Positions 72 through 16,606 of a stretch of DNA of 64,000 nt are shown in pieces (within the stretch, counting starts at the first letter, position 1; each line of letters begins with the position of its first letter). The translations under genes and the position numbers were made by a program. This DNA is from an uncultured Acetatifactor sp. (GTDB taxonomy: Bacteria > Bacillota > Clostridia > Lachnospirales > Lachnospiraceae), in NCBI GenBank assembly GCA_944384205.1, contig CALWSL010000011.1, positions 1 through 64,000 of the forward strand, written 5' to 3'. A model generated the notes under the pieces. The model was not told the origin of the DNA, searched no databases, and saw nothing but the letters and a program-made list of their open reading frames with translations.

Positions 72-302
72 GGGCACTCGCACATCGCTTTGTTAATCGA
101 GAAGGGGCTGCAGCCACTGGTTATCGCACAGAGAGTTGGACACGACTCCGTAAATACTACCATGAACATTTACGGACACCTGTATCCCAACAAGCAGAAG
201 GAAGTGGCAGATCTGCTCAATGCCGAGGCTACCGGGGAGCTGGAAAACAATCTGGTGGATATGGCAACGGAGATGCGGTTCCGAAAGGCAGGTGGATGGT
301 AA
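72..302 (+). pseudogene. C-terminal stump of a tyrosine integrase
   Basis: The open frame begins right after a stop at 69-71 and reads GHSHIALLIEKG, then GHDSVNTTMNIYGHLYP. This is the catalytic C-terminus of phage/ICE tyrosine recombinases: the HxxR-like box, the GH..VNTT stretch and the tyrosine in the YGHLYP context. The catalytic core and the DNA-binding N-terminus are absent; the sequence upstream of 72 does not continue the frame. A TTG at 90 could start a 70-residue peptide, but it would not be an active recombinase. The stop overlaps the next ATG (taATG at 300-304). I read it as the remnant of the integrase of the mobile element whose mob genes follow. Confidence 0.8.
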
Positions 303-2909: not shown

Positions 2910-2951
2910 GTTTTTTAATACTACTCTATTTTCGATAAGTCCTCCTTTCTA

Positions 2952-2979
2952 TTGACCAATAACTTTTTTGGGGTATAAA
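2952..2979 (+). promoter_or_regulatory. Upstream promoter/operator copy
   Basis: TTGACC (2952-2957), a 16-base spacer and TATAAA (2974-2979). It lies within the first copy of a 20-bp direct repeat (2951-2970) whose second copy contains the stronger promoter downstream. Confidence 0.5.
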
Positions 2980-3006
2980 ATCCAGAAAAAACAGTCAAAA
3001 ACATTA

Positions 3007-3035
3007 TTGACCAATGACTTTTTTGTATGTATAAT
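3007..3035 (+). promoter_or_regulatory. Promoter of the restriction-modification gene
   Basis: TTGACC (3007-3012), a 17-base spacer and a perfect TATAAT (3030-3035), 24 bases before the start codon at 3059. The -35 region sits in the second copy (3006-3025) of the repeat ATTGACCAATRACTTTTTTG; the two copies match at 19 of 20 positions and are 55 bp apart. GGAGG at 3048-3052 is the ribosome binding site. Confidence 0.7.
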
Positions 3036-3058: not shown

Positions 3059-6000
3059 ATGAACTTAAGAGAGATAGAAGCTAAATTTAAAAAGAATACA
3101 TTTAATAATGAAGATGATATAAAGATTCATTTTCATTCGGACATAATAAAGCCATTATTAGAAGAATTGAACCCTGAGATGGCTGGACAATATCGCAGTG
3201 AGGATGTTTTGAAAGCAGGCGGAAGAACGGATGCGACTTTCCAGAATATTTCGTTTGAATTTAAGAAAGAAGGGTATTTTGATAAAACTTCAGGAATAAA
3301 GGAAGCGGTGTACGGAAGAGATCATGCAGATCATGGTCTGCATGATTATATTTTAAGCAATGCAGGTATAAGTGTCAATGATAAGATGGATGTCATTATA
3401 AAAAAGATTTTATCGGGTATTGGTGTTGGATTTGATGGAAAACAATTTATTTTTGCAAGATTTATTCCGTCTACTCAAAAAACATTACTTGATACGAGTA
3501 AAGTAAAGATAGATATAAATGAGGCTGTAAATATCGAATTTGTATATGAGGTGAAAGATTTCTCAAAGGGAATTAAAAGGCTTGCTTTGCTTTTGAAGCA
3601 GACAGATAAGATTTCGCTTTCGAAGCAGATGTTATGTGCTGTAATAAATCCTAAAAGTGATTATGTGCGGGGAAGTATATTAAAAATTTATAATAGTCTC
3701 GGTGAAAATCTGGATACAACTAAGGACACATTTAATAATAGAGTTAAAACTTTATATGATGAGTGGAACCGCGTATTTGGAGTAATGTACGGTGATGATG
3801 AAGATGCAACAGATTTTACAGAGGTGTCTTCTAAGATAAGAGATATGTATGGAATTAGTGATATTCACGAAATTGATAGTAAAAGATATCTTTTTTCGAT
3901 GCAAACTTTTTTCAATATTTTTCTGAAGTTATTAGTTTATTCTTTCTTGGCGCAGTTAGTAGATCCAATGTTTACTACACAACAGGAACTCTCCAAGGAT
4001 GAAATTAATAGACTCTTTGACGGTAATACAGATGATAGTTGTAAATTGGTAAATAATTTCTTTGAATCTCATTTTTTAGAGTGGTTTACATTTACAGCTA
4101 ATATAAATGATCCCGAATCAAGTTTTGATGTAAAACTTGTTAACGAAACACTGACAGTTGTTAATAAGTTTGATTTAAGTACATTTGTCTTGAGACCTGA
4201 AAATGTACAGGATATTTTACAGGAAGTGTATATGGGGTTAATCCCACAGGAAATGCGACATTTGATGGGGGAGTATTTTTCGCCGGATTGGATCGTAGAG
4301 CATGCTCTTGATATGGCAGGATATGCAGGCGATATTAGTAAAACTTTGATTGATCCAACCGCAGGATCAGGTTCTTTTTTGACGCAGGCAATTAAGCGTA
4401 TTATCAATCAAAAAGGCGGCGTTTTAACGAAAGCTGATATTGTAAATATTACACAAAATATTGTTGGATTCGATATTAATCCTATTTCAGTTGTGTCAGC
4501 AAAAGCAAATTATATTCTTATAATGTTTTCTGCGTTTTTTGATAACTGTGATGAAGAATTTGGAGATTCTGTAGGGATACCTGTTTTTATAGCTGATTCA
4601 ATACTGGCTCCGGTGGTATATACGGAGGAGAACGATGATACTCTAAAATTGGAAACTACAGTTGGAGAGATTGAAATTCCAAAGTTCGATTCATTCTCAA
4701 AAGGAAATGAATTTTTAAAACTTTTAAGTCAATCTATAGACGATAGGGGTTCGTATGAGATATTTGAGAGTTTGGCGCTTGGGAAAGGGTTGATTACCGA
4801 AAATGATGTGGATATTGTAAAGGCATTATTTTCAAAACTGAGTGTATTACATCGTGCAAGTAAAGATTCTTTTTGGCCTATTATTTTCAGAAATAGCTTT
4901 GCTCCTGTTATGATAAGAGATAAGTTTGATTTTGTTGTAGGAAATCCGCCTTGGATTGCATGGAAAGCAATGAGTAAAAGCTATCGCGCGGGTACACTTA
5001 CAATATGGCAGAGCTATGGAATATTTGAAAAAAATGCTTATGATAAAAAAACCACACATGATGATTTTGGAATGGCGGTTACATATGTTTCTGTAGATCA
5101 GTACTTAAAAATAGGAGGAAGTATGGTGTTTCTTCTTCCGGCTTCTTTTTTGAAATCAACAAAGGGGGGAGAAGGTTTTAGAAAATTTGAAATTATAAGA
5201 AATAATCAAAGCGTTCCATTTAATGTAGAAAAGGTGCATGATTTTTCTAGCGTGAGTTTGTTTACGATACCTACTGTTGCCATAAAGTTTGGAAAAGGAA
5301 CTGCTATGCAATATCCTATGCAACAATATAGATTTTATACTCAAAAGGGGAGAAAAAGTAAAATAGATTCACATGCTGATTGGAAGCAAGTGTCTGAAAT
5401 GGTGGAGTATTCAGATTGTTTAGCGCAGCCCGTAGACAAGGATGATATACAGTCTGCATGGCTAACCCTTGAAGATATGACATTTGCTAATAATGTTGTA
5501 AACCCTGAAATAGAACGTATATATAAGGGCAGAAAGGGGATTGAACCAGCAGGAGCCAAAGGTGTTTACATTTTGCTTAAACCTAAAAAAGTGAGAAACG
5601 GATATTTGGAAATAATCAATGATATGTCGAGACAAAGAAGAAAGGATATTATTGATAAAGGTATTCATAAAGGAGTCGTTGAAGAAAAATATATTTATCC
5701 GATGCTAGGGGGGCGTAATATTGCTCGTTGGATGGTTAAGTCTAATGAATATATGATTGTACCGCATTCATCAGAATATAAGTATGGTATACCCGAGGTA
5801 AAATTAGCGAGAGAAGCACCAGAGACATTTCAGTGGTTATCGTTTTATCATGATGAACTTTTGGATACGAGAATACAGAATGGTAAATTTTTCAATCCAG
5901 AAACACAGCCGTTTTATAGATTAGACAATGTGGGAACATATACATATTCTCCATATAAGGTTTTGTGGAAAGAGCAGACGGGAAGTATGGCTGCAGTTGT

Positions 6001-6373
6001 AGTTTCTACTTACTTAAAATCTGTTCCGAATGCGGATATTGATCTTTTTTCAGAAGATAAGCCGGTTGTTGTTGATTCAAAAGTTCTTATGCTAGATGTT
6101 TATGATGAAATGGAAGCCTATTATATATGTGGAATTATTAATTCTCCTAGTGTGATAGAGGTCGTTGATGGTTATGCAATTTCGACTAATAGGGGAGTTG
6201 ATGTCTTGAAGTATATTGCTATTGCTAAATATGATGAGACAAATCAAGTGCATAGAAAGATTGCAGAAATCTCTAAAAATATTCATGATAAGATGAGAGA
6301 AACATCTGGAAAAGCAAATATTATGCAGTTAGAGAATGCACTTAATGAAGAAATTCATAAGTTGTTTTCATAA
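3059..6373 (+). CDS. Type IIG-like restriction-modification enzyme
   Basis: A 1104-residue protein that appears to join endonuclease and adenine methyltransferase. Near the N-terminus, GGRTDATFQNISFEFKKEG gives a PD-(D/E)XK-type D58...E67-x-K69. Motif I is DPTAGSGSF (from D432) and motif IV is NPPW (629-632), which is typical of N6-adenine methylases. About residues 800-1060 are a probable target-recognition region with beta-rich 'YIYPMLGGRNIARW' and 'SPYKVLWKEQTGSM' segments, as in Eco57I-like enzymes. One chain that both cuts and methylates needs no separate S or R subunit. It heads the AT-rich island and has its own promoter. A BREX PglX assignment is less likely because of the N-terminal nuclease motif and the lack of other BREX genes. 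Confidence 0.8.
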   Translation: MNLREIEAKFKKNTFNNEDDIKIHFHSDIIKPLLEELNPEMAGQYRSEDVLKAGGRTDATFQNISFEFKKEGYFDKTSGIKEAVYGRDHADHGLHDYILSNAGISVNDKMDVIIKKILSGIGVGFDGKQFIFARFIPSTQKTLLDTSKVKIDINEAVNIEFVYEVKDFSKGIKRLALLLKQTDKISLSKQMLCAVINPKSDYVRGSILKIYNSLGENLDTTKDTFNNRVKTLYDEWNRVFGVMYGDDEDATDFTEVSSKIRDMYGISDIHEIDSKRYLFSMQTFFNIFLKLLVYSFLAQLVDPMFTTQQELSKDEINRLFDGNTDDSCKLVNNFFESHFLEWFTFTANINDPESSFDVKLVNETLTVVNKFDLSTFVLRPENVQDILQEVYMGLIPQEMRHLMGEYFSPDWIVEHALDMAGYAGDISKTLIDPTAGSGSFLTQAIKRIINQKGGVLTKADIVNITQNIVGFDINPISVVSAKANYILIMFSAFFDNCDEEFGDSVGIPVFIADSILAPVVYTEENDDTLKLETTVGEIEIPKFDSFSKGNEFLKLLSQSIDDRGSYEIFESLALGKGLITENDVDIVKALFSKLSVLHRASKDSFWPIIFRNSFAPVMIRDKFDFVVGNPPWIAWKAMSKSYRAGTLTIWQSYGIFEKNAYDKKTTHDDFGMAVTYVSVDQYLKIGGSMVFLLPASFLKSTKGGEGFRKFEIIRNNQSVPFNVEKVHDFSSVSLFTIPTVAIKFGKGTAMQYPMQQYRFYTQKGRKSKIDSHADWKQVSEMVEYSDCLAQPVDKDDIQSAWLTLEDMTFANNVVNPEIERIYKGRKGIEPAGAKGVYILLKPKKVRNGYLEIINDMSRQRRKDIIDKGIHKGVVEEKYIYPMLGGRNIARWMVKSNEYMIVPHSSEYKYGIPEVKLAREAPETFQWLSFYHDELLDTRIQNGKFFNPETQPFYRLDNVGTYTYSPYKVLWKEQTGSMAAVVVSTYLKSVPNADIDLFSEDKPVVVDSKVLMLDVYDEMEAYYICGIINSPSVIEVVDGYAISTNRGVDVLKYIAIAKYDETNQVHRKIAEISKNIHDKMRETSGKANIMQLENALNEEIHKLFS

Positions 6374-6412
6374 GACGGTATTATCTATTTTTTATTTTAT
6401 GGAGTAATTTCG

Positions 6413-7021
6413 ATGAATAAAGTTAATTTTCCTTTCTGGGATGATGAGGTTGAAAAAGCGATTACAGAGGTTTATCGAGTAAAAAGTCAGATTCAAAGTG
6501 TAGGTGTAAGATTGAAGACTAATGATATTTCCGATGAGGAATTTTCAGTGTTATTGAATAATGTATATGAAACATTAAAATATTGGACTGGACATACTTA
6601 CATCGGACAGCACAAGAAGAAAGATATTCAGAAAGCATATCAAACTTTTTTTGAAGCGTTGTATGATTTCCTTTTTGTTTGCAGAGAACTTGGTAATCCT
6701 GTGCTTAAGTCTTTTGCGGACGAAGCATTGTATCGTGGTTTGTTATATAGATATTTAGGATATGGATTCGTGGAAAAGAATGCTGATAAAAGAGTAGAAC
6801 CACAATACAATAATATTTATGTTTCATGGAGTAAACAACCTAAAAATCATTACATTGAAAGTAAGCTATATGGCACAATGACCTTGTTGACTTGTAAAAT
6901 AGATGAACCATATTACGGAATTGATTTAGAGGCTTTTGGTGTAGTTCGAGGTCAAGAAGCTGAGGTTGTATTTCCGACAATCAAAGAAACAATAACAGAG
7001 GTTAAGTACATCAGAGAATAG
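6413..7021 (+). CDS. Probable ADP-ribosyltransferase (R-S-E type)
   Basis: A 202-residue protein. The C-terminal half carries the three marks of R-S-E ADP-ribosyltransferases in order: an arginine in 'LYRGLLY' (R108), a serine motif in 'YVSWSKQ' (S138/S140), and an ExE-type turn 'GQEAEVVFPT' (E182/E184) before the closing beta strand 'ITEVKYI'. Residues 1-100 are helical and may be a partner-binding or substrate-binding region. There is no signal peptide, so it should act in the cytoplasm. GGAG lies 8 bases before ATG 6413. It lies 39 bp after the restriction-modification gene and 19 bp before a GNAT, in one direction. The assignment is from motif pattern only; the target is unknown. Confidence 0.6.
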   Translation: MNKVNFPFWDDEVEKAITEVYRVKSQIQSVGVRLKTNDISDEEFSVLLNNVYETLKYWTGHTYIGQHKKKDIQKAYQTFFEALYDFLFVCRELGNPVLKSFADEALYRGLLYRYLGYGFVEKNADKRVEPQYNNIYVSWSKQPKNHYIESKLYGTMTLLTCKIDEPYYGIDLEAFGVVRGQEAEVVFPTIKETITEVKYIRE

Positions 7022-7040
7022 ACATTTAAGAAGGTGAAAA

Positions 7041-7508
7041 ATGGAGTATATTGAAATTGATAAAAAGATATTTCTACAAGTGTTCGAGTATGAGGATATC
7101 GAAGCATTTACCCAAGTATGTAAACGGTCTCAAGAAGCTAATTATTTTGCAATTAAAGAAATATGGAATCCGGGAATTGAGGTGGTTCTTATTTACAAGC
7201 GTTTTTTAGGGATATTAAGCAACAATATTGGTTTTGTTTCGATGATAGATTGTAAACGGTTAAGTAATAATGAAAAGAAAATGGTAAGTCTATTGGGAGT
7301 ACCGAAAAAATACAAGGGGATTATTATTAATGATATGAGAATGTCGGTGACATGTAGACACAAAGGGATAGGTACAAAAGTCGTAAATAAAATATTGCAA
7401 GATGATAAGACTTATATGTTGGAACCTATAGAAGATGGTAAAACATTTTGGAAGAAGTTTGGTTTTAAGGAAAATGGTAAGTTGTCTATTCGCGAAAAAA
7501 TTGAGTAA
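7041..7508 (+). CDS. GNAT-like acetyltransferase
   Basis: A 155-residue protein with a GNAT motif A, 'MRMSVTCRHKGIGTKVV' (R106-x-x-G-x-G), which holds the acetyl-CoA pyrophosphate, and a typical C-terminal 'TFWKKFGFKENG' strand-helix. AAGGTG precedes ATG 7041. Placed 19 bp after the ADP-ribosyltransferase, it could modify that protein or its target, or be an independent toxin-like acetyltransferase. Nothing in the sequence decides which. Confidence 0.7.
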   Translation: MEYIEIDKKIFLQVFEYEDIEAFTQVCKRSQEANYFAIKEIWNPGIEVVLIYKRFLGILSNNIGFVSMIDCKRLSNNEKKMVSLLGVPKKYKGIIINDMRMSVTCRHKGIGTKVVNKILQDDKTYMLEPIEDGKTFWKKFGFKENGKLSIREKIE

Positions 7509-7584
7509 AAATTGCTTGAAGTATTTTTAGTTGCATTGTTACACGAAATCTTAGTATATATGTAGAATTAAGGAATGAGGGTTT

Positions 7585-8772
7585 ATGAAATTTACAATAG
7601 GGACAGCTTCTAGTAGTATGGAATTTGCAGAAGATATGAAGTTAATAAAAAGTTCTTTGCTCTATGCAGACGAAATTGAATTAATAGGAATGGCAGAGTA
7701 TGCTATATATAATTACTTACCGAAATGTATAGCAAAGGCAAACGACATAGATGGAATATTGAGTGCGTTTATACCATTTCTTGGTGCGTTTGATAATAAA
7801 GAGGCAAATGAAATGGTTGAGCAGTTAAGAAATTTGAAACAACAAATTTCTCCGTATATGCCATATCTCAAAAAACAGAAGAAAAGAAATAAACAGGAAA
7901 TTCTTGCACAAATTAAAATGGGACAAGTAGAAAAAGAATGCAGAGAATCATTTGATGTAATGATAAATTCTTTGATTGAACAAAGCGGTGCAAAGGATAT
8001 TCAAAAGCTTGTGGATAGAAAGATTATTTCTGTTTATGATTATTCCTATAACAATTTTGGTGTTGAAGAGTTGACAGGGGGATATTTTGCCAATTTACTT
8101 GGAACTATAAAACACGGAACATCATTTCCTTTGTTTGATAATATAAGTACTGATATAGTCAGGGCGGTAATAAATAATAAGATAATAGATTTTGGAAAAA
8201 CAGATAAAGAAATTATCCGACATGCAGGTATAGCAAATAATATATTATCGACATTACCAACATTAGAAAAAGCAAGTATAGATGAAATATTGGATTTTAA
8301 AAAAGAAATGAAGGTTCCTTTGGATAATTTTAGAATTGCAATATATGATTTTTCTCAAAAGATAACTTCAATGCCTTGGGATGATGATTTTCAATATGAA
8401 TGTCTTAAGTTATATGATACGGAAGTTGTTCCAAAAGTAAATGAAATAAATGAGCTATCAAGCGAAACAAGTGTGTTGAAGAATTTTGGTAGTCGGGTTT
8501 TAGCAGATGAAGAGGAACGAAGGAAATTAGGATATGTTGGAGCAGGGCTTATTACAACTATAACGACAGGCTCGAATATTGCAAGTGCATTAGGAATATT
8601 GGAGAACTTGATTCACATGGGTTCTAAAATTGGATTAACAGGAGCAACTGTAACAGCATTTTTAAAAACAGCAGATTTGTTAAATCAATCTAATAAAGAG
8701 GTAAAAGAGAAGAAAAACGAAATTCAAAAAAATGTTATGTATTATTATTACAAGGCAAGCAAAAAAATATGA
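7585..8772 (+). CDS. Unknown protein with hydrophobic C-terminal segment
   Basis: A 395-residue protein that I do not assign to a named family. The N-terminus (IGTASSSMEFAEDMKLIKSSLLYADEI) resembles hypothetical proteins of defence islands that begin with a short strand and a 'SLLYAD' helix. The middle is helical with a Lys-rich stretch (KKQKKRNKQ). About residues 318-352 are hydrophobic and Gly/Thr/Ala-rich ('YVGAGLITTITTGSNIASALG'), which could be a membrane-inserting segment, and the tail is Lys-rich and helical. Its stop overlaps the next start (ATGA at 8769-8772), implying co-translation with the AlbA_2/GHKL protein. GAGGG precedes ATG 7585. Confidence 0.6.
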   Translation: MKFTIGTASSSMEFAEDMKLIKSSLLYADEIELIGMAEYAIYNYLPKCIAKANDIDGILSAFIPFLGAFDNKEANEMVEQLRNLKQQISPYMPYLKKQKKRNKQEILAQIKMGQVEKECRESFDVMINSLIEQSGAKDIQKLVDRKIISVYDYSYNNFGVEELTGGYFANLLGTIKHGTSFPLFDNISTDIVRAVINNKIIDFGKTDKEIIRHAGIANNILSTLPTLEKASIDEILDFKKEMKVPLDNFRIAIYDFSQKITSMPWDDDFQYECLKLYDTEVVPKVNEINELSSETSVLKNFGSRVLADEEERRKLGYVGAGLITTITTGSNIASALGILENLIHMGSKIGLTGATVTAFLKTADLLNQSNKEVKEKKNEIQKNVMYYYYKASKKI

Positions 8773-10280
8773 TAAATTTGATTATGGTAGAAAGTGAGAT
8801 GAGTATTTTGGAAAAAACTTTTGACCTTTCACAATTTGATGAATACAGAGAAGACAACAGAAGAGAAGTGAAAAAAGCAGACGGTGGTTTGCCGGTTTCG
8901 TTGTGGGACACCTATTCTTCCTTTGCGAACTGCTATGGTGGAGTTATTATTCTTGGTGTTAAGGAAAACAAAGACGGTAGTTGGAGAACTACCGGTCTTC
9001 AGAATGCATCTAAGCTTCGTAAGGAATTTTGGGATAATATGAATAATCCCAAGAAGGTAAATATTAATCTTTTGTCAGAAGATGATGTGCAGACTTATGA
9101 AGTTGGTGATAATAAGGATGTCATCATGGTTATTTATGTGCCTATGGCAAAGCGTGAGCAGAAGCCGGTGTACATCAATAATGATATTTTCAATGGCACT
9201 TTTCGTCGCAATTACGAGGGCGATTACCATTGTACCAGATTGCAGATAAAGACCATGCTTCGTGACCAGACCGAGCGTACGATGGATATGGAAGTGCTTG
9301 ATAAGGTTCCGATGGAAGATTTGAATTATGATACCATTCATGGATATCGTAACAGCCATCGTTCTTTAAAAGAAGGACATCCTTTTGAGCGCCTAAGCGA
9401 CCATGAATATCTGAGAAGCATTGGTGCGGCTGCTATTTCCGATGAAGATGGAAAGTTGCATCCGACGGCAGCAGGTATGTTGATGTTTGGTGATGAGTAC
9501 AACATTGTGCGTCACTTCCCGGAGTATTTCTTGGATTACAGAGAAGAGTTGGATCCTACCACCCGTTGGAGTGATAGATTGCAGTCAAGTTCCGGTGAAT
9601 GGTCCGGAAACGTGTGTGACTTTTATTTTAGAGTTTATAACAAGATTATCAAAGACATTAAAGTGCCTTTCAAAATGAACGGTGGCGAACGTGTTGACGA
9701 TACTCCGGTGCACAAGGCACTTCGTGAGGCTTTGGCAAACTGCCTGATTAATGCAGATTATCATGGCTTGCGTGGTGTTGTTATCCGTAAGGAACCGGAC
9801 AAGTTGGTTTTAGCAAATCCCGGTTATGTTAGAACGGGTAAAAAGCAAATGCGTCTTGGTGGCGAATCTGATCCTCGAAACAAGGCTCTTATGAAGATGT
9901 TTAATCTCATCAATATCGGTGAACGTGCTGGAAGTGGTGTGCCGAATATCTTTAATGTTTGGGCAGATGAAGGTTGGGAAGAACCGATAATTGAGGAGAG
10001 ATTTGACCCGGATAGAACGGTACTGTCGCTTTCTTTTGTGAAAAAAGAGAAGGAAGAAGTCAAATTATTAGATAAAAAAATAAGCGAAATAAAGAGTGAG
10101 CCAATTGTAAAAATCATGGAATATTTGGAACAGAATAATGAAATTACAACAGCTAAAGGTGTAGAAATAACGGGTAAATCAGAAGCACAGGTAAGAAGAT
10201 ATTTGAAAAGCTTGTGTAATGTAGGCATTATACAAAGTACAAAGACTACCAAGGGAAATGTATACATTAAAAAAATGTAA
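8769..10280 (+). CDS. AlbA_2 / GHKL ATPase (Schlafen-like) protein
   Basis: A 503-residue protein of the 'divergent AAA_4/AlbA_2' type. The N-terminal AlbA_2 domain is shown by 'GLPVSLWDTYSSFANCYGGVIILGV'. A GHKL-type ATPase region follows, with 'ALREALANCLINADYHG', 'GGESDPRNKALMKMF' and 'INIGERAGSGVPNIF'. The end (about 440-503) is a winged-helix module ('GKSEAQVRRYLKSLCNVGII'). Such proteins bind nucleic acid and occur as regulators or immune effectors. ATG 8769 overlaps the previous stop; ATG 8799 (MSILEKTFDL) matches the family N-terminus better. The central part (about 8.87-10.0 kb) uses more GC-rich codons than the genes either side, suggesting separate ancestry. Confidence 0.8.
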   Translation: MINLIMVESEMSILEKTFDLSQFDEYREDNRREVKKADGGLPVSLWDTYSSFANCYGGVIILGVKENKDGSWRTTGLQNASKLRKEFWDNMNNPKKVNINLLSEDDVQTYEVGDNKDVIMVIYVPMAKREQKPVYINNDIFNGTFRRNYEGDYHCTRLQIKTMLRDQTERTMDMEVLDKVPMEDLNYDTIHGYRNSHRSLKEGHPFERLSDHEYLRSIGAAAISDEDGKLHPTAAGMLMFGDEYNIVRHFPEYFLDYREELDPTTRWSDRLQSSSGEWSGNVCDFYFRVYNKIIKDIKVPFKMNGGERVDDTPVHKALREALANCLINADYHGLRGVVIRKEPDKLVLANPGYVRTGKKQMRLGGESDPRNKALMKMFNLINIGERAGSGVPNIFNVWADEGWEEPIIEERFDPDRTVLSLSFVKKEKEEVKLLDKKISEIKSEPIVKIMEYLEQNNEITTAKGVEITGKSEAQVRRYLKSLCNVGIIQSTKTTKGNVYIKKM

Positions 10281-10345
10281 TTCGCTCATCATTTTGAGCG
10301 GATAATGAGCGAATTATGATTGAATAATGAGCGGATTGTGATTGA
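10279..10345 (+). promoter_or_regulatory. GAGCGRAT repeat operator
   Basis: Four copies of a GAGCG(G/A)AT core lie between the AlbA_2 gene and the ATPase gene. AATTCGCTCAT (10279-10289) is a perfect inverse of ATGAGCGAATT (10305-10315), another copy is at 10295-10302, and a 20-bp direct repeat AATGAGCGRATTRTGATTGA occurs at 10304-10323 and 10326-10345 (18/20 identical, 22-bp period). The layout suits cooperative binding of a regulator upstream of the ATPase gene. Confidence 0.6.
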
Positions 10346-10364
10346 AAAATACAGAGGTGAAAAA

Positions 10365-12319
10365 ATGATTGCAGCAGTACTGTTAAGACATTATAAGAAC
10401 TATGGCAATGTAAAATTTGTGCCAATTTGTGATAATCCAAACTATAGATATTCTGTCTATGTTGGTAACAATGGAGTGGGAAAAAGTGCAATACTGGAAG
10501 CGTTGGATGTTGAATTAAATGGTAGATTTTGGAATGTAACATTTAATATGAAGAAGTCGGAAGCGTTCATTTGTCCGCTCTTTCTCATTGAAAAAAGAAA
10601 ATACCAACAAGTAGACAGGGATTATTTGAGGTAGTTAGTGACTTTTTTTGGAATACAGATGAAGCAACAAATGCAAACGTAAAAAGCAATAAGGAACTAA
10701 AAGAGTTTATACGATACAAAGATGCATTAAAAGAAACGTATAAAGATACGCATTATCTTATTTTGATTGGGACAAGTTATGATAATCCTAAAGGGGTGCA
10801 TTGTGCAACTTTTAAAGGGGCAATTGAAAAGGAGTTGGAAAATAAATTATTAAAGGATTCCACACAAGCTAAGGATGCTTTAATGGATGTAAAGAAGATA
10901 ATACATGGATTGTATAGCTATCTATATATACCAGTTGAAGAGGCACCTAATGAATTGTTGAAATTGCAGAATACAACAATGCAACAACTGCTCAATAAAA
11001 ATATTTTGTCGGAGATTGAGAAGATATTAAATAAAAAGACAAATGGCAAGTCTATTGTTACTTTAATCAACGATAATCTGGATGAATTTATTAATGATGT
11101 GAATACTATAATTTCAAGAATAGATAGTAAATATAGTTTCATGAGTGAAGCGGGAAATAAAAAGAATTTAACAGCGAAAGACATTCGTGAAAAGATTCTG
11201 GAAGCATATTTTCCTTTAAGGACGCTTAAAGCAAATAATCATCGAATTGAACAATTGAGTTCTGGTGAGCAAAGAAAAGCTATTATTGATGTCGCGTATT
11301 CGATTCTGTTAGCAAATGGAGATAAGGAAACAGAGAGAGATATTATTTTGGCTATAGATGAGCCAGAAACTTCAATGCATATTTCAAATTGTTTTAATCA
11401 GTTTTTAATGTTGGAGGAATTAGCAAGAACACATCAAAGACAGGTAATGATTACAACACATTGGTATGGCTTTTTGCCTATTGCGCAGAATGGAAGATTG
11501 CATCATATATTATCAACTGGAAATACGGCAAAAGTAGATACATTTTCTTTGTATAATGTACTTGAAGAAAGAAGAAGTTTTCCTGATGTAATAGAGTTGA
11601 AAAGTATGTATGATTTGGCTACAAGCATTATTACATACATGCGTGCAAAACCTGAAACAAGTTGGATTATATGTGAAGGAAGCGACGATAAAGTATATTT
11701 GGAATATATACTAAAAGACTATAATTCGATTTCAATACTTCCAGTTGGCGGATGCGGTAACGTTGTTAAACTGTATCAGTTATTGTATAGTCCATTAACC
11801 GAAAAAACAGAAGGAAAAGATGGGAAGGCTTTGTTTTTAATGGATACAGATTTATTATATAAATCCATAAACAAACCACTTGAATTTAGTTCCAATAGTA
11901 GTTCAATATTTTTGCGAAGACTACAGATTGATAAAGGTGAAATAAAACTACTGGATCCATGTAATCCCAATATATATAGTCAAACGGAAATGGAAGATTG
12001 CTTAAATCCCAGATGTTATTATGAAGCTGTTATGAAAGCTATTCATAATAGTGGGAATAGTAAATTAAAGTCTCTTTCGAAAAAATATTCTTTTGTGGAA
12101 GATGCCAAAGTTTCAGTATTACGAGGAGACGATTCTTGTATTCGAGCAATAGATTGTAAAGTTATTTCACAAAAAAGTCAAATAGTGGATTTTGCTGAGA
12201 GTTCAGAAAATAAGTATACAATAGCAAAATTGTATAGAGAGATTTGTGAGCAATCTTCGGATAAGGTTGAACACAAACTGAAGGAATGCATTATTAAACT
12301 TTTAGATATTTCTAAATAG
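10365..12319 (+). pseudogene. OLD/PARIS-like ATPase-TOPRIM protein, frameshifted
   Basis: ATG 10365 follows AGAGGTG. The first frame has Walker A GNNGVGKS (about 34-41) and runs to a stop near 10634. The homologous continuation is in the -1 frame, open from 10592. It carries the ABC-like signature 'LSSGEQRKAI', Walker B 'ILAIDEPETSMH', 'ITTHW', and a TOPRIM or DUF4435-like part with 'ICEGSDDKVYLEYI', 'PVGGCGNV' and the DxD of 'LFLMDTDL'. Adding one A to the A6 run at 10591-10596 restores a single protein of about 650 residues. It belongs to the overcoming-lysogenization-defect type or fused PARIS type of anti-phage ATPase. It could be a true mutation, a phase-variable tract or a consensus error. 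Confidence 0.75.
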
Positions 12320-12360
12320 TGCACTGAAAAAGAAATGATATTACAGTAAGGAAGTAAAAT

Positions 12361-12894
12361 ATGTCAAAGCAAATAGTCGTACATAATACGGACGAACTGA
12401 ATAACTACAAGAATACTATTCTGGATAATCTGAATAGTAGCGCTAATATGCTACAGAAAGTGTTGAGTAATAATGATGCATTGGATGCATTTAAAATATT
12501 CAAGTTTGAGAAGATGGCAGCAGAACCACTTTCTGGTAACCCGGAAAATCTTATTGAAGTGATTAATCAGGCACATACATATTTGATATCTATTATGGCT
12601 GTTGAGTATTTGTACAAGTTACATCCTGCACAAGCATTTATTATTAACTGGGGAAATATCCCCGGATACGATATTGAATCGGTGGATGGAACAATTATTG
12701 CTGAATGCTTTGCAGCGACAAGTTATAAAAGCAATGGAAAACTTACTGCAGATTTAAAGCGTCTTGCAGGTAATACAGAAGCTGAGTATAAGTATGAGTT
12801 TTTCTATGACAAAGATTTTACAGAAAATCATAAAGAGTATTACAAAGAAAAGTATCCGGATATAGAAATAGTTAAATTTAAAGATATTAAGTGA
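12361..12894 (+). CDS. Probable PD-(D/E)XK-like protein paired with the ATPase
   Basis: A 177-residue protein 41 bp after the ATPase gene, with AAGGAAG before ATG 12361. The C-terminal half has 'GYDIESVDGTIIAECFAA...SNGKLTADLKRL', the strand-turn-strand D..(x)..E-x pattern of restriction-endonuclease folds, with lysines shortly after ('SYKSNGKL'). The canonical ExK lysine is not in place ('ECF'), so activity is uncertain. It has no signal peptide or membrane segment. Its position suggests that it works with the ATPase-TOPRIM protein. Confidence 0.5.
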   Translation: MSKQIVVHNTDELNNYKNTILDNLNSSANMLQKVLSNNDALDAFKIFKFEKMAAEPLSGNPENLIEVINQAHTYLISIMAVEYLYKLHPAQAFIINWGNIPGYDIESVDGTIIAECFAATSYKSNGKLTADLKRLAGNTEAEYKYEFFYDKDFTENHKEYYKEKYPDIEIVKFKDIK

Positions 12895-14710: not shown

Positions 14711-14737
14711 GCGGATGGTTCAGCGCGGACCATCCGC
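14711..14737 (+). terminator. Bidirectional hairpin between convergent genes
   Basis: A perfect 9-bp inverted repeat GCGGATGGT / ACCATCCGC with a 9-base loop, between the GNAT (+) and the ibrB-like gene (-). It abuts the ibrB stop. There is no T-run on the plus strand. Confidence 0.5.
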
Positions 14738-15288
14738 TATCCTGTAAAGTCTGTATCGCTGTCTGCTTCCGCGTCCTCCGCAGGCAGCCAGGCTTTTCCG
14801 AAGTCAATATCCCTGAATAGCTCGGCGAGACCGGTAATCTGCTTCAGACGCAGAATTTCATCCTTATCCATGCCGAGATGCTTGGAGATCCAGGCATCAG
14901 AACGTCCCAATTCGTGGAGTTCTTTGATGATATTGCTCATCAGGTCCACATCGTGCGAACCTCTGGCGCGGTTATGGCGTATAGTGCTCGCCATGCGGTG
15001 ATCCAGAGGCTTGTCAATCACGGAGACAGGCAGCATGCCGCCTTCCCTTTCATAGATATCGGGATAATCCAGCATGATGCGGTAGCGGTGAAAGCCGTCG
15101 ACAATGATATAGGTGTCAGAAGGCTTATCATAGTAGCAGACGACGGGCATGGTATAGCCGTCCTCCTTGATGCTGTCATACAGCAACTTAAGCTCAGGGG
15201 GCGCCACGCTGTTGGGGTTATATGTATTTGGCTTAACCTTCTCAATGGGAACAGAAATAACCTGATATACAGGGCTTTTATATGTCAT
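14737..15288 (-). CDS. ibrB: ParB/Srx-like protein, IbrB-like
   Basis: A 183-residue protein with an N-terminal ParB/sulfiredoxin-like fold: 'IEKVKPNTYNPNSVAPPELKLLYDSIKEDGY', then 'YIIVDGFHRYRIML' and 'STIRHNRARGSHDVD'. A helical HTH-like end follows ('SDAWISKHLGMDKDEILRLKQ'). It matches the IbrB partner of the ibrA-ibrB pair known from E. coli, where the two regulate immunoglobulin-binding eib genes. Its ATG overlaps the ibrA-like stop (ATGA), so the pair is co-translated. Similar ParB-like/PAPS-reductase-like pairs are spread by phages and islands; the biochemical role is unclear. Confidence 0.75.
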   Translation of the reverse strand: MTYKSPVYQVISVPIEKVKPNTYNPNSVAPPELKLLYDSIKEDGYTMPVVCYYDKPSDTYIIVDGFHRYRIMLDYPDIYEREGGMLPVSVIDKPLDHRMASTIRHNRARGSHDVDLMSNIIKELHELGRSDAWISKHLGMDKDEILRLKQITGLAELFRDIDFGKAWLPAEDAEADSDTDFTG

Positions 15289-16606
15289 AATAAATCACCT
15301 AAATTCTGATATTTTTCTTTTAGCAAATTAATATTTGCCTGTTGCTGTCTTGTCAGTCCAAATCCCATAAACCGGCAAATGTGATCGTTTTTCAAAATGC
15401 AGTAGCACATACGCTTCCAGCTTGGGATGTCCTTGGTAGACTTAATGTCGTCAGTATGATCTGGCAGCTTTCCTACAAAAATAATCCGGGTGCTTTTCAT
15501 AACGGTGTAGTTGGAAATACCGTTGCGGCGTATGTTGTAGCCATGGTCAAGCAGTTCCTGTATCGTGTTTTCTTCCAGACCGCCTCCCACTGTATGCCAG
15601 AAATGAATGGATGATTTGAATTTGGTAATATAATTGTTCCGCAGTCTGGCGGGCAGTGTGGCAAGCAGAAACTTGGTATAGGACTCCCATGTGTGTCCTT
15701 CCGGAAGTGTAAGATTGCGGTAGCCGAGAGCTTTTGTTCTTCCGTAGATGGCACCGAAGTTTGCACCTCTGACGCGACCGACAAGCTTTGTCCATATCTC
15801 CGGGTCGATGACGCGGTACAAATTCAGACTGTCCTTTGCGTAATCGTTAAAGGGTGAAGCCACACGCATCTGCTCCGGTTTCAATCCTGCCATATAATAG
15901 AGATCGTATAAACGATTGTAATCATAAGAAAAATGATAGATTGCGTGCCACACATCGCTCAAGGTCCAGTCGTAGAGGGGAGAGGCACACCACATATTTT
16001 TAAACTGTTTGCTGATCCAACAGGTGTTATCATAGCCGTATTTGCGGTTTAAAAAGCCGCAATAGCGCTGCAGGGATTCCTCTGCACGGATGCCCAGAAG
16101 ACAAACCGTTTTTTTGTTTCCGTGGGAAATGCGGTACCAGCGTCCGAACTGTTTTGCCAAATCTTCCTGGTGCATACGGTAGCGATAGGTTGTCATTGGG
16201 TTGTTTTTCAGATTGATGACATAAGGGTGGTTTGGCATAGGACGCACCCAGATATCTTCTTTGGTATCGTCCCAGGGATACCAGACATTTCATAATTGCT
16301 TAGGGCTGTTCTGGTTGCCATGGGCAGACACACCCAATATGGCTCCACGTCCTGCCAGATTCGGGCAAAGGTTCTTTCGATATATTCGGTAGTCACTGTA
16401 TACTGCGCTTCAAAGTCCTGATGAAACACGCCGATTTTCCTGTCGGGATAATATTTCTTTTGAAAGTCCAGCGTCAGATTTAACAGCAGTCCGCTGTCCT
16501 TTCCGCCGGAAAAAGACACAAAGATATTATCAAATTCATTAAAAATATAGTGAAGTCTGTCCTGCAGCGCATCGTATACGTTTTGACCGGTATATTTTCG
16601 TTTCAT
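15285..16606 (-). pseudogene. ibrA: PAPS-reductase-like protein (IbrA-like), frameshifted
   Basis: ATG 16606 opens a frame with PP-loop SFSGGKDSG (residues 31-39), as in ATP pyrophosphatases of the PAPS reductase/DndC group. Homology stays in this frame to 'TRTALSNYEM' and then continues in another frame as 'PWDDTKEDIWVRPMPNHP', running to 15285 with 'LLGIRAEESLQRY' and a DUF3440-like tail. One missing base near 16284-16286 accounts for the switch. The restored length would be about 440 residues, normal for IbrA. AGGATGGTG lies upstream of the start. It is either inactive or a consensus error. Confidence 0.75.

What the first reader, a model, noticed from the sequence alone, without database searches (positions are those of the whole stretch)
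3059..12894. Seven-gene, AT-rich defence-like island of mixed, partly unrecognised parts
A fused RM enzyme, a probable ADP-ribosyltransferase, a GNAT, an unknown hydrophobic-tailed protein, an AlbA_2/GHKL protein, an OLD/PARIS-like ATPase and a small nuclease-like protein follow one another in one direction with short gaps or overlaps. The order does not match a system known to me, and the middle four genes could form an undescribed unit.
Basis: partly seen in the sequence, partly recalled or inferred. Interest (0 to 1): 0.75.

Follow-up and report, generated by a model that had tools for sequence, protein, structure and literature searches.

The report
Patchwork defence island with RM-linked toxin-like gene
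This stretch of a bacterial chromosome is a patchwork of separately acquired virus-defence genes rather than one machine, and one of its unknown genes turns up again beside or inside restriction enzymes in two other bacteria, which suggests a toxin-like enzyme tied to DNA restriction.

Summary
The seven-gene, one-strand, AT-rich block exists (GC 0.335 versus 0.454 in 17-64 kb), but I find no sign that it is one unit or that its middle four genes recur together. It divides into modules: a type IIG RM gene; a 202-aa gene plus a GNAT-like gene; a 395-aa unknown gene; a Schlafen/AlbA_2-GHKL-wHTH gene; an OLD-type ATPase-TOPRIM gene, frame-broken here, plus a 177-aa gene. The useful result is the 202-aa gene. 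Two relatives were found. In a Lachnospiraceae MAG (L016) it and the GNAT are shared as a sharply bounded 1.1-kb block behind a type I RM cluster. In another genus of the same family (G815) a 46%-identical copy, without GNAT, lies inside a type I operon between hsdM and hsdS. All three copies keep R113, S138/S140 and E182-x-E184, the residue order of an ADP-ribosyltransferase (recalled). No profile, solved structure or usable model confirms that fold. Best reading: an ADP-ribosyltransferase-like effector attached to RM operons, working like PrrC in EcoprrI or DarTG2 in the RRDM island. This rests on three loci and no experiment.

The parts
2950..3035 (+). Likely promoter region of gene 1: two copies of a 21-nt direct repeat (2950-2970, 3005-3025), each holding a -35-like TTGACC; best promoter-like site 3007-3035 (11 of 12)
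   Evidence: promoter scan overall not far above chance (63 found, shuffles 53.5, sd 6.7)
3059..6373 (+). Gene 1: fused type IIG restriction-methyltransferase, 1104 aa
   Evidence: PADLOC PDLC03625 1124 bits over residues 2-1077; Pfam Eco57I and N6_Mtase above cut-off; no PDB sequence at E<=0.001
6413..7021 (+). Gene 2: 202-aa ADP-ribosyltransferase-like protein; helical N half, conserved C half with R113, S138/S140, E182-x-E184
   Evidence: no convincing family or PDB match
7041..7508 (+). Gene 3: 155-aa GNAT-like protein
   Evidence: Acetyltransf_7 19.6 bits, below cut-off 27; 85% identical copy in L016
6400..7513 (+). Module of genes 2 and 3 shared with L016:7986-9101; identity 92-100% per 50 bp from 6441 to ~7240, 78-84% from there to ~7490
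   Evidence: blastn 93.7% over 1118 columns, the only match between L016 and the window at E<=1e-5; 50-bp profile
7585..8772 (+). Gene 4: 395-aa protein of unknown family with a mildly hydrophobic C-terminal segment
   Evidence: single-sequence model unusable (pLDDT 39.8)
8769..10280 (+). Gene 5: Schlafen/AlbA_2 + RecG-C/GHKL ATPase + winged-helix protein, 503 aa; GC 0.398, higher than the other island genes (0.306-0.341)
   Evidence: SLFN_AlbA_2, HATPase_c_4 and FaeA above cut-off; phrog_12156 1.9e-50; PDB 2kyy 4.1e-05; GC
10280..10347 (+). 11-bp-spaced repeats (TGAGCGRAT and degenerate copies, one inverted) between gene 5 and gene 6; possible operator
   Evidence: the four exact TGAGCGRAT sites in the window all lie here (mean 1.32 in shuffles; 4 of 100 shuffles reach four, without regard to clustering)
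10365..12319 (+). Gene 6: OLD-type ABC ATPase with TOPRIM-like C part, in two frames (10365-10634 and 10592-12319), frame-broken as written
   Evidence: relatives annotated as one CDS in L008, L009, L010, while 2 of 16 plasmid records match in two annotated pieces (H34, H38)
12361..12894 (+). Gene 7: 177-aa protein, 37% identical (MAFFT) to one beside a GmrSD_N (DUF262) gene on a Sulfitobacter plasmid
   Evidence: no convincing family or PDB match

Best explanation
The region is a composite defence island made by stacking independent modules. Gene 2 encodes an ADP-ribosyltransferase-like effector that attaches itself to restriction-modification operons. Proposed mechanism: the protein is made together with the RM enzyme (shown is only the position: 39 nt behind the type IIG gene here, 47 nt behind the last gene of a type I RM cluster in L016, and between hsdM and hsdS in G815). 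It is held inactive in healthy cells, by the RM complex or, where present, by the GNAT (inferred). When a phage blocks or escapes restriction it is released and modifies a host or phage target with ADP-ribose from NAD+, stopping the infection (inferred). Genes 5 and 6 are separate defence effectors of known kinds. Gene 6 is frame-broken in this sequence. Genes 4 and 7 remain of unknown activity; my guess is that gene 4 is a stand-alone effector with a membrane-seeking tail and gene 7 a partner of the enzyme in front of it.
For: Modularity: L016 shares only 6400-7513 with the window. Genes 4, 5, 6 and 7 each have relatives elsewhere without the other island genes. Gene 5 has a different base composition. 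RM linkage of gene 2: behind type IIG here; in L016 behind hsdM, hsdS, hsdR and a YgjP-like metallopeptidase, with a PDC-M36A-like and an AbiEii gene nearby; in G815 between hsdM and hsdS with a 2-nt gap and a 14-nt overlap. N6-methylase genes are few in these genomes (PF02384: 6 places in G000, 3 in G815), so such adjacency is unlikely by chance. ART reading: R113, S138/S140, E182-x-E184 invariant in 3 of 3; window against G815, C half 59% and N half 32% identical. Both genes of the pair look under purifying selection between window and L016 (dN/dS about 0.21 and 0.22). Precedents: PrrC embedded in EcoprrI (PMC3874165 and PMC12707154, passages; PMC2610378, abstract); DarTG2 embedded in a type I RM with an M48 metallopeptidase, in an island shown to protect against phage (PMC12255303, passages).
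Against: No profile or structure search supports an ART fold: no Pfam family for the window and L016 copies at E<=10 or the G815 copy at E<=1; no PDB sequence; PHROGs and NCBIfam gave only weak matches of no ART kind (best 0.028 and 0.035). The AlphaFold model is poor (mean pLDDT 54, most of its conserved half below 50), with no Foldseek match at E<=0.001. Only three loci are known, and two of them are near-identical copies from a recent transfer, so the RM link may rest on two independent events. In L016 four other genes (DUF6414, hsdS, hsdR, YgjP-like) lie between hsdM and gene 2. The GNAT is absent in G815, so it cannot be a universal antitoxin. No toxicity, defence or regulation data. Defence islands collect genes at insertion hotspots, so adjacency need not mean coupling.
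Confidence: 0.45

Rival explanations
1. Genes 2 and 3 are a self-contained toxin-antitoxin-like or abortive-infection pair (ART plus GNAT) that merely hitch-hikes into RM loci; it is not controlled by the RM enzyme.
For: Shared as a sharply bounded two-gene block between otherwise unrelated loci; 19-nt gap and joint purifying selection.
Against: The G815 copy has no GNAT and is woven into hsdM-hsdS with an overlap; a hitch-hiker need not sit directly behind RM genes in 3 of 3 loci.
Confidence: 0.3
2. Gene 2 is not an ART but an accessory subunit or regulator of RM enzymes, and its R/S/E pattern is chance conservation within a small family.
For: No ART profile match; only three sequences, two of them 98% identical.
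Against: Conservation concentrates in the C half, with R, S-x-S and E-x-E in ART order; it accompanies both type I and type IIG enzymes, which are built differently.
Confidence: 0.17
3. One reading: genes 2-5 form one undescribed multi-gene system.
For: Same strand, short gaps, 4-nt overlap of genes 4 and 5, no + strand terminator-like site in the spacers between them.
Against: No co-occurrence in any of 27 foreign loci apart from genes 2 and 3 in L016; genes 2-3 occur without 4-5; gene 5 differs in GC.
Confidence: 0.04

Closest known systems
PrrC / EcoprrI (anticodon nuclease gene embedded in a type IC RM operon)
   Same: Effector-like gene embedded in a type I RM operon (G815); acts when restriction is blocked (shown for PrrC, proposed here)
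   Different: PrrC is a tRNA nuclease with ABC ATPase motifs; gene 2 has ART-like motifs, no ATPase match, and also occurs behind a type IIG enzyme
RRDM island (RptR - type I RM - DarTG2 - M48 metallopeptidase)
   Same: ADP-ribosylating toxin embedded in a type I RM operon; L016 has a metallopeptidase gene (YgjP-like) between hsdR and gene 2
   Different: No DarT match in the profile searches; partner is a GNAT or nothing, not a DarG macrodomain; RptR was not sought here
OLD-ABC ATPase-TOPRIM proteins (OLD, PARIS, Gabija)
   Same: Gene 6: AAA_15 ATPase, LSSGEQ/DEPE motifs, TOPRIM-like E...DTD; the Acinetobacter relative sits inside a BREX-1 locus (L010)
   Different: Single protein followed by a 177-aa gene; no helicase gene and no separate AriB next to it; frame-broken here
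Schlafen RNase - minimal histidine kinase - wHTH proteins of BREX and related loci
   Same: Gene 5 has the same three parts; a relative sits between hsdS and hsdR in Pseudoalteromonas (L013)
   Different: No BREX gene seen next to it here; activity untested
Type IIG RM enzymes
   Same: Gene 1, near full-length match to PDLC03625
   Different: None detected

Membership tests
Type IIG RM | Near full-length match to a fused restriction-methyltransferase model | tested here: met
   PDLC03625, 1124 bits, residues 2-1077 of 1104; D...EFK, DPTAGSGSF and NPPW stretches are visible in the translation (their meaning as motifs is recalled)
ADP-ribosyltransferase (R-S-E class) | R, S-x-S and E-x-E residues in order in the conserved half | tested here: met
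   Invariant in 3 of 3 sequences; that these positions define ARTs is recalled
ADP-ribosyltransferase (R-S-E class) | Match to a known ART profile | tested here: not met
   None in Pfam, PHROGs or NCBIfam; none in the PDB sequences. So it is not filed as a member, only called ART-like
ADP-ribosyltransferase (R-S-E class) | ART fold | tested here: inconclusive
   Model pLDDT 54, conserved half mostly below 50; Foldseek best E 0.17
DarTG | DarT profile and adjacent macrodomain antitoxin DarG | tested here: not met
   No such match in the scans; the next gene is GNAT-like (window, L016) or HsdS (G815). PADLOC was run on the window and L016 copies only
PrrC | ABC ATPase plus anticodon nuclease domains | tested here: not met
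   Gene 2 is 202 aa without any P-loop or nuclease match
PARIS | AriA ATPase plus separate AriB | tested here: not met
   ATPase part matches an AriA model (44.6 bits); the C part lies in the same protein in the relatives; gene 7 matches no PADLOC model. Fused AriAB forms exist in PADLOC, so a PARIS-like fusion is not excluded
OLD-ABC ATPase-TOPRIM | AAA_15 ATPase followed by TOPRIM in one protein | tested here: inconclusive
   AAA_15 39.0 bits over 32.1; OLD-like_TOPRIM 18.7 under 23.2; E and DTD kept in 4 of 4 aligned sequences, window included
Schlafen-HK-wHTH | AlbA_2, GHKL-type ATPase and winged helix in one protein | tested here: met
   Three Pfam models above cut-off; architecture described in PMC12839542 (section 35 read in full)
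GNAT | Acetyltransferase profile above cut-off | tested here: inconclusive
   Acetyltransf_7 19.6 bits, cut-off 27; L016 copy 15.4

The most novel reading that the evidence does not exclude
A previously undescribed class of RM-guarding suicide effectors: an ADP-ribosyltransferase that plugs into different restriction systems (type IIG and type I), kept silent by the enzyme it accompanies and unleashed by phage anti-restriction, with an optional GNAT partner.
Probability: 0.3. Interest if true: 0.75.

Novelty: new variant of a known kind. Interest (0 to 1): 0.52.

Why it matters
PrrC and DarTG2 are examples of toxins built into restriction operons as a second line against phages. If gene 2 is another, it shows that a single effector family can accompany both type I and type IIG enzymes, which argues that what is sensed is something common to them (blocked or released RM protein, or its DNA products) rather than one particular subunit. 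It is a short gene and easy to test. For the island as a whole, the lesson is that tight gene spacing on one strand did not mark a single system here.

Tried and rejected
Rejected: a four-gene middle unit. Rejected: filing gene 6 as PARIS or Gabija (no separate AriB, no helicase beside it). For the gene 6 break I looked for a canonical -1 slippage heptamer by reading the printed sequence and saw none in the right register; a programmed shift is not excluded, an assembly error neither. Dropped from all counts: the G685 hit to the gene 2 profile (17.1 bits, E 0.005, residues 65-122, in the 3.2-kb locus no RM-like ORF that I recognised). Uninformative: the single-sequence model of gene 4 and the Foldseek list for gene 2 (top 50 of 440 seen, three HEPN entries at E 0.6-1.2). 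Led nowhere: viral-contig scans, which reach close relatives only (0 relatives in 8 scans); phage tblastn for genes 2 and 4; plasmid tblastn for gene 2, gene 3 and the G815 copy; plasmid searches with the island DNA and the left flank; PDB searches for genes 2, 4, 7 and their profiles (gene 4's profile gave only E>=0.12); right-flank DNA in 31 genus genomes (10 of 31 matched, own included, in scattered parts; no empty site worked out). Literature: ten searches. Those on ART with GNAT, RM, hsd or embedding listed 9 of 9, 15 of 19, 12 of 336, 9 of 9, 12 of 190 and 10 of 73 papers; in these listings I recognised DarTG in RM (PMC12255303) but nothing like gene 2. Papers opened: PMC12839542 (passages and section 35), PMC10568477, PMC12255303, PMC3874165, PMC12707154 (passages), PMC2610378 (outline and abstract).
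Full report
Observation. The block described is real. Seven consecutive genes lie on the + strand between 3059 and 12894 with gaps of 39, 19, 76, -4, 84 and 41 nt and GC 0.335 against 0.454 for the 17-64 kb part of the window. One correction is important: the ATPase gene is in two frames. The Walker-A part runs from an ATG at 10365 (placed by alignment to relatives L008-L010) to a stop at 10634, and the rest is open from 10592 to 12319. As written this gene is broken. A second gene nearby, the DUF3440/PAPS-reductase-like gene at 15285-16606, is also split between overlapping frames (DUF3440). Whether these are mutations or assembly errors cannot be told here. The window starts at base 1 of contig C11, so nothing upstream is known.

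Families. Gene 1 is a type IIG RM enzyme (PDLC03625, 1124 bits). Gene 5 carries AlbA_2/Schlafen, RecG-C/GHKL and winged-helix parts, each above its Pfam cut-off. Gene 6 is an AAA_15/OLD-type ATPase with a TOPRIM-like tail; the E and DTD positions are kept in 4 of 4 aligned sequences (window, two Lactiplantibacillus, one Acinetobacter), but the Pfam TOPRIM match is below cut-off. The review PMC10568477 (passages) sorts such proteins by neighbours: alone, with a helicase (Gabija), with a retron, or as PARIS. Gene 3 is weakly GNAT-like. Genes 2, 4 and 7 match nothing convincing in Pfam, PADLOC, NCBIfam or PHROGs.

Distribution. The unknown parts are rare in what was searched. Gene 2: 1 of 295 order genomes (own only), 2 of 329 family genomes (own and G815), 2 of 155 in a further draw around G815 (G815 itself and a weak G685 hit that I dropped; this draw overlaps the previous one), and 1 relative in the genome-contig scan, which reaches close relatives only (53 stretches matched a pattern; L016). 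Gene 3: 1 of 246 (own). Gene 4: 2 of 295 (own and G088), 1 of 249 with a 7-row profile drawn over the phylum (own), and 6 plasmid records, all actinobacterial, at 19.6-24.5% identity. Gene 6, second frame: 1 of 196 (own) and 16 plasmid records, 15 Lactiplantibacillus and 1 Acinetobacter. Gene 7: 1 of 199 (own) and 1 plasmid record. Gene 5 is more widespread: 20 plasmid records at E<=1e-20.

Neighbourhoods. I fetched surroundings for gene 4 relatives (L002-L007: 6 loci, that is the G088 copy with only 3.5 kb and 5 of the 6 plasmid records; the sixth, H2, matches with the same identity and coverage as H1 and was not opened), gene 5 relatives (L012-L014, 3 of 20 records), gene 6 relatives (L008-L010, 3 of 16) and the gene 7 relative (L011, 1 of 1). 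Comparing every island protein with 23 foreign loci, and again with all 27 held at the end, gave no locus with two different island genes except L016 (genes 2 and 3) and L004, where a gene 4 relative has a divergently placed N6-methylase gene beside it that resembles the gene 1 methylase part weakly (27% over 157 aa). Gene 6's relatives lie inside a BREX-1 operon between pglX and pglZ (L010), near an AlwI-type RM (L008) or among IS and recombinase genes (L009). A gene 5 relative lies between hsdS and hsdR (L013); the other two lie among glycosyltransferases (L012) and near IS256 genes (L014). Gene 7's relative follows a GmrSD_N gene (L011). These look like the contexts of independent genes, several of them in defence loci. 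The literature agrees for genes 5 and 6: PMC12839542 (section 35) lists TOPRIM-linked OLD-ABC ATPases and Schlafen-histidine kinase-wHTH proteins as back-up effectors around BREX and related systems.

The gene 2-3 module. L016, a 16.6-kb stretch of a Lachnospiraceae MAG from roe deer rumen, shares one block with the window at E<=1e-5: 6400-7513 against 7986-9101, 93.7% over 1118 columns. It starts just before the gene 2 start and ends just behind the gene 3 stop. Gene 2 is 98% and gene 3 85% identical in protein. Per 50 bp, identity is 92-100% from 6441 to ~7240 and 78-84% from there to ~7490, which points to recombination within gene 3. dN/dS is about 0.21 for gene 2 and 0.22 for gene 3 (0.0125/0.0604 and 0.0806/0.361), so both look under purifying selection. 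In L016 the block follows a type I RM cluster (HsdM, DUF6414, HsdS, HsdR; Pfam) and a YgjP-like metallopeptidase, and precedes a PDC-M36A-like gene, an IS66-type element (my reading of the ORFs) and DUF6088 and AbiEii genes.

The third copy. G815, another genus of the same family, has a 213-aa relative (46% identical in the MAFFT alignment; 41.7% by tblastn) inside a type I operon: hsdM (HsdM_N, N6_Mtase 1.8e-114) ends 2 nt before it and hsdS (Methylase_S 2e-37, start taken at 1303) begins 14 nt before its end. No gene 3 relative is found in the 14 kb held; the contig ends in a GACA-type repeat soon after hsdS. So in 3 of 3 known loci gene 2 stands directly behind an RM gene or RM cluster, in three different arrangements. 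N6-methylase genes are few in these genomes (PF02384 at E<=1e-5: 6 places in G000, 3 in G815). Two of the three copies are recent relatives of each other, so this is at least two, not certainly three, independent associations.

Is gene 2 an ADP-ribosyltransferase? The C half is more conserved (59% against 32% in the N half, window versus G815). R113, S138, S140, E182 and E184 are invariant in all three. That is the order of the R-S-E class of ARTs (recalled). Against it: no ART profile in Pfam, PHROGs or NCBIfam, no PDB sequence, and a model too poor to use (pLDDT 54; Foldseek best E 0.17). I therefore call it ART-like and do not file it as a member.

How it may work. PrrC is embedded in the EcoprrI operon, is held latent in the type I complex and is released when the phage blocks restriction (PMC3874165 and PMC12707154, passages; PMC2610378, abstract). 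DarTG2, an ADP-ribosylating toxin-antitoxin pair, is embedded in a type I RM with an M48 metallopeptidase in the RRDM island, which as a whole protects against phage (PMC12255303, passages). By analogy, gene 2 would be a latent effector expressed with the RM enzyme and set free by anti-restriction or another infection signal. The GNAT is optional, so it is at most a local antitoxin, second effector or helper. Shown: position, co-orientation, conservation. Inferred: enzymatic activity, latency, trigger.

Other details. Between gene 5 and gene 6 there is an array of 11-bp-spaced TGAGCGRAT-like repeats (four exact sites, mean 1.32 in shuffles, 4 of 100 shuffles reach four). Gene 5 has a winged helix, so an operator bound by gene 5 is possible but untested. 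[quoted passage not shown] Gene 5 relatives are annotated 'RNA-binding domain-containing protein' on many of the plasmids listed, so genes 5-6 might parallel that pair; I did not test this.

Verdict. The island as one system: not supported. That its second gene is a recurrent, RM-attached, ART-like gene is, as far as the listings and passages I saw go (lists capped), not described; it is moderately supported and cheap to test.

Noticed in passing
window 15285-16606 (-) and 14737-15288 (-): DUF3440/PAPS-reductase-like (IbrA-like, name recalled) gene split between two overlapping frames, followed by a weakly ParB-like (IbrB-like) gene; a second frame-broken gene near the island.
   Followed up: partly
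window 90-302 and 1056-2513: Integrase-like C-terminal remnant with stops at the contig edge (my reading; no Pfam match for 90-299) and a 485-aa coiled-coil protein with a weak MobV relaxase match (16.7 bits, cut-off 100) and a phrog_31146 match (3.2e-20): perhaps remains of a mobile element.
   Followed up: partly
window 10280-10347: 11-bp-spaced direct repeats with one inverted copy in the spacer before the ATPase gene; all four exact TGAGCGRAT sites of the 64-kb window are here.
   Followed up: partly
L003:6938-8146, L004:6944-8155, L005:7109-8137, L006:6785-7780, L007:7022-8089, L002:1489-2565 (-): The gene 4 family is an unnamed ~330-400 aa family; in the plasmid collection it was found only in actinobacteria. 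All 7 aligned members have a hydrophobic C-terminal segment (19-residue Kyte-Doolittle peak at least 1.26). Some lie near defence-type genes (TIR in L005, N6-methylase and RES in L004).
   Followed up: partly
L011:2114-4321: Gene 7's only relative found directly follows a GmrSD_N (DUF262) gene resembling PADLOC candidate PDC-M55C (1.6e-57): the 177-aa protein may be a partner of two different defence enzymes.
   Followed up: partly
L010:4560-6494: Gene 6 relative (AAA family ATPase) inside an Acinetobacter BREX-1 operon between pglX and pglZ.
   Followed up: no
L031:1-80: The contig with the hsdM - gene 2 - hsdS operon ends in a GACA-type tandem repeat just behind hsdS, which might be a phase-variation tract.
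   Followed up: no
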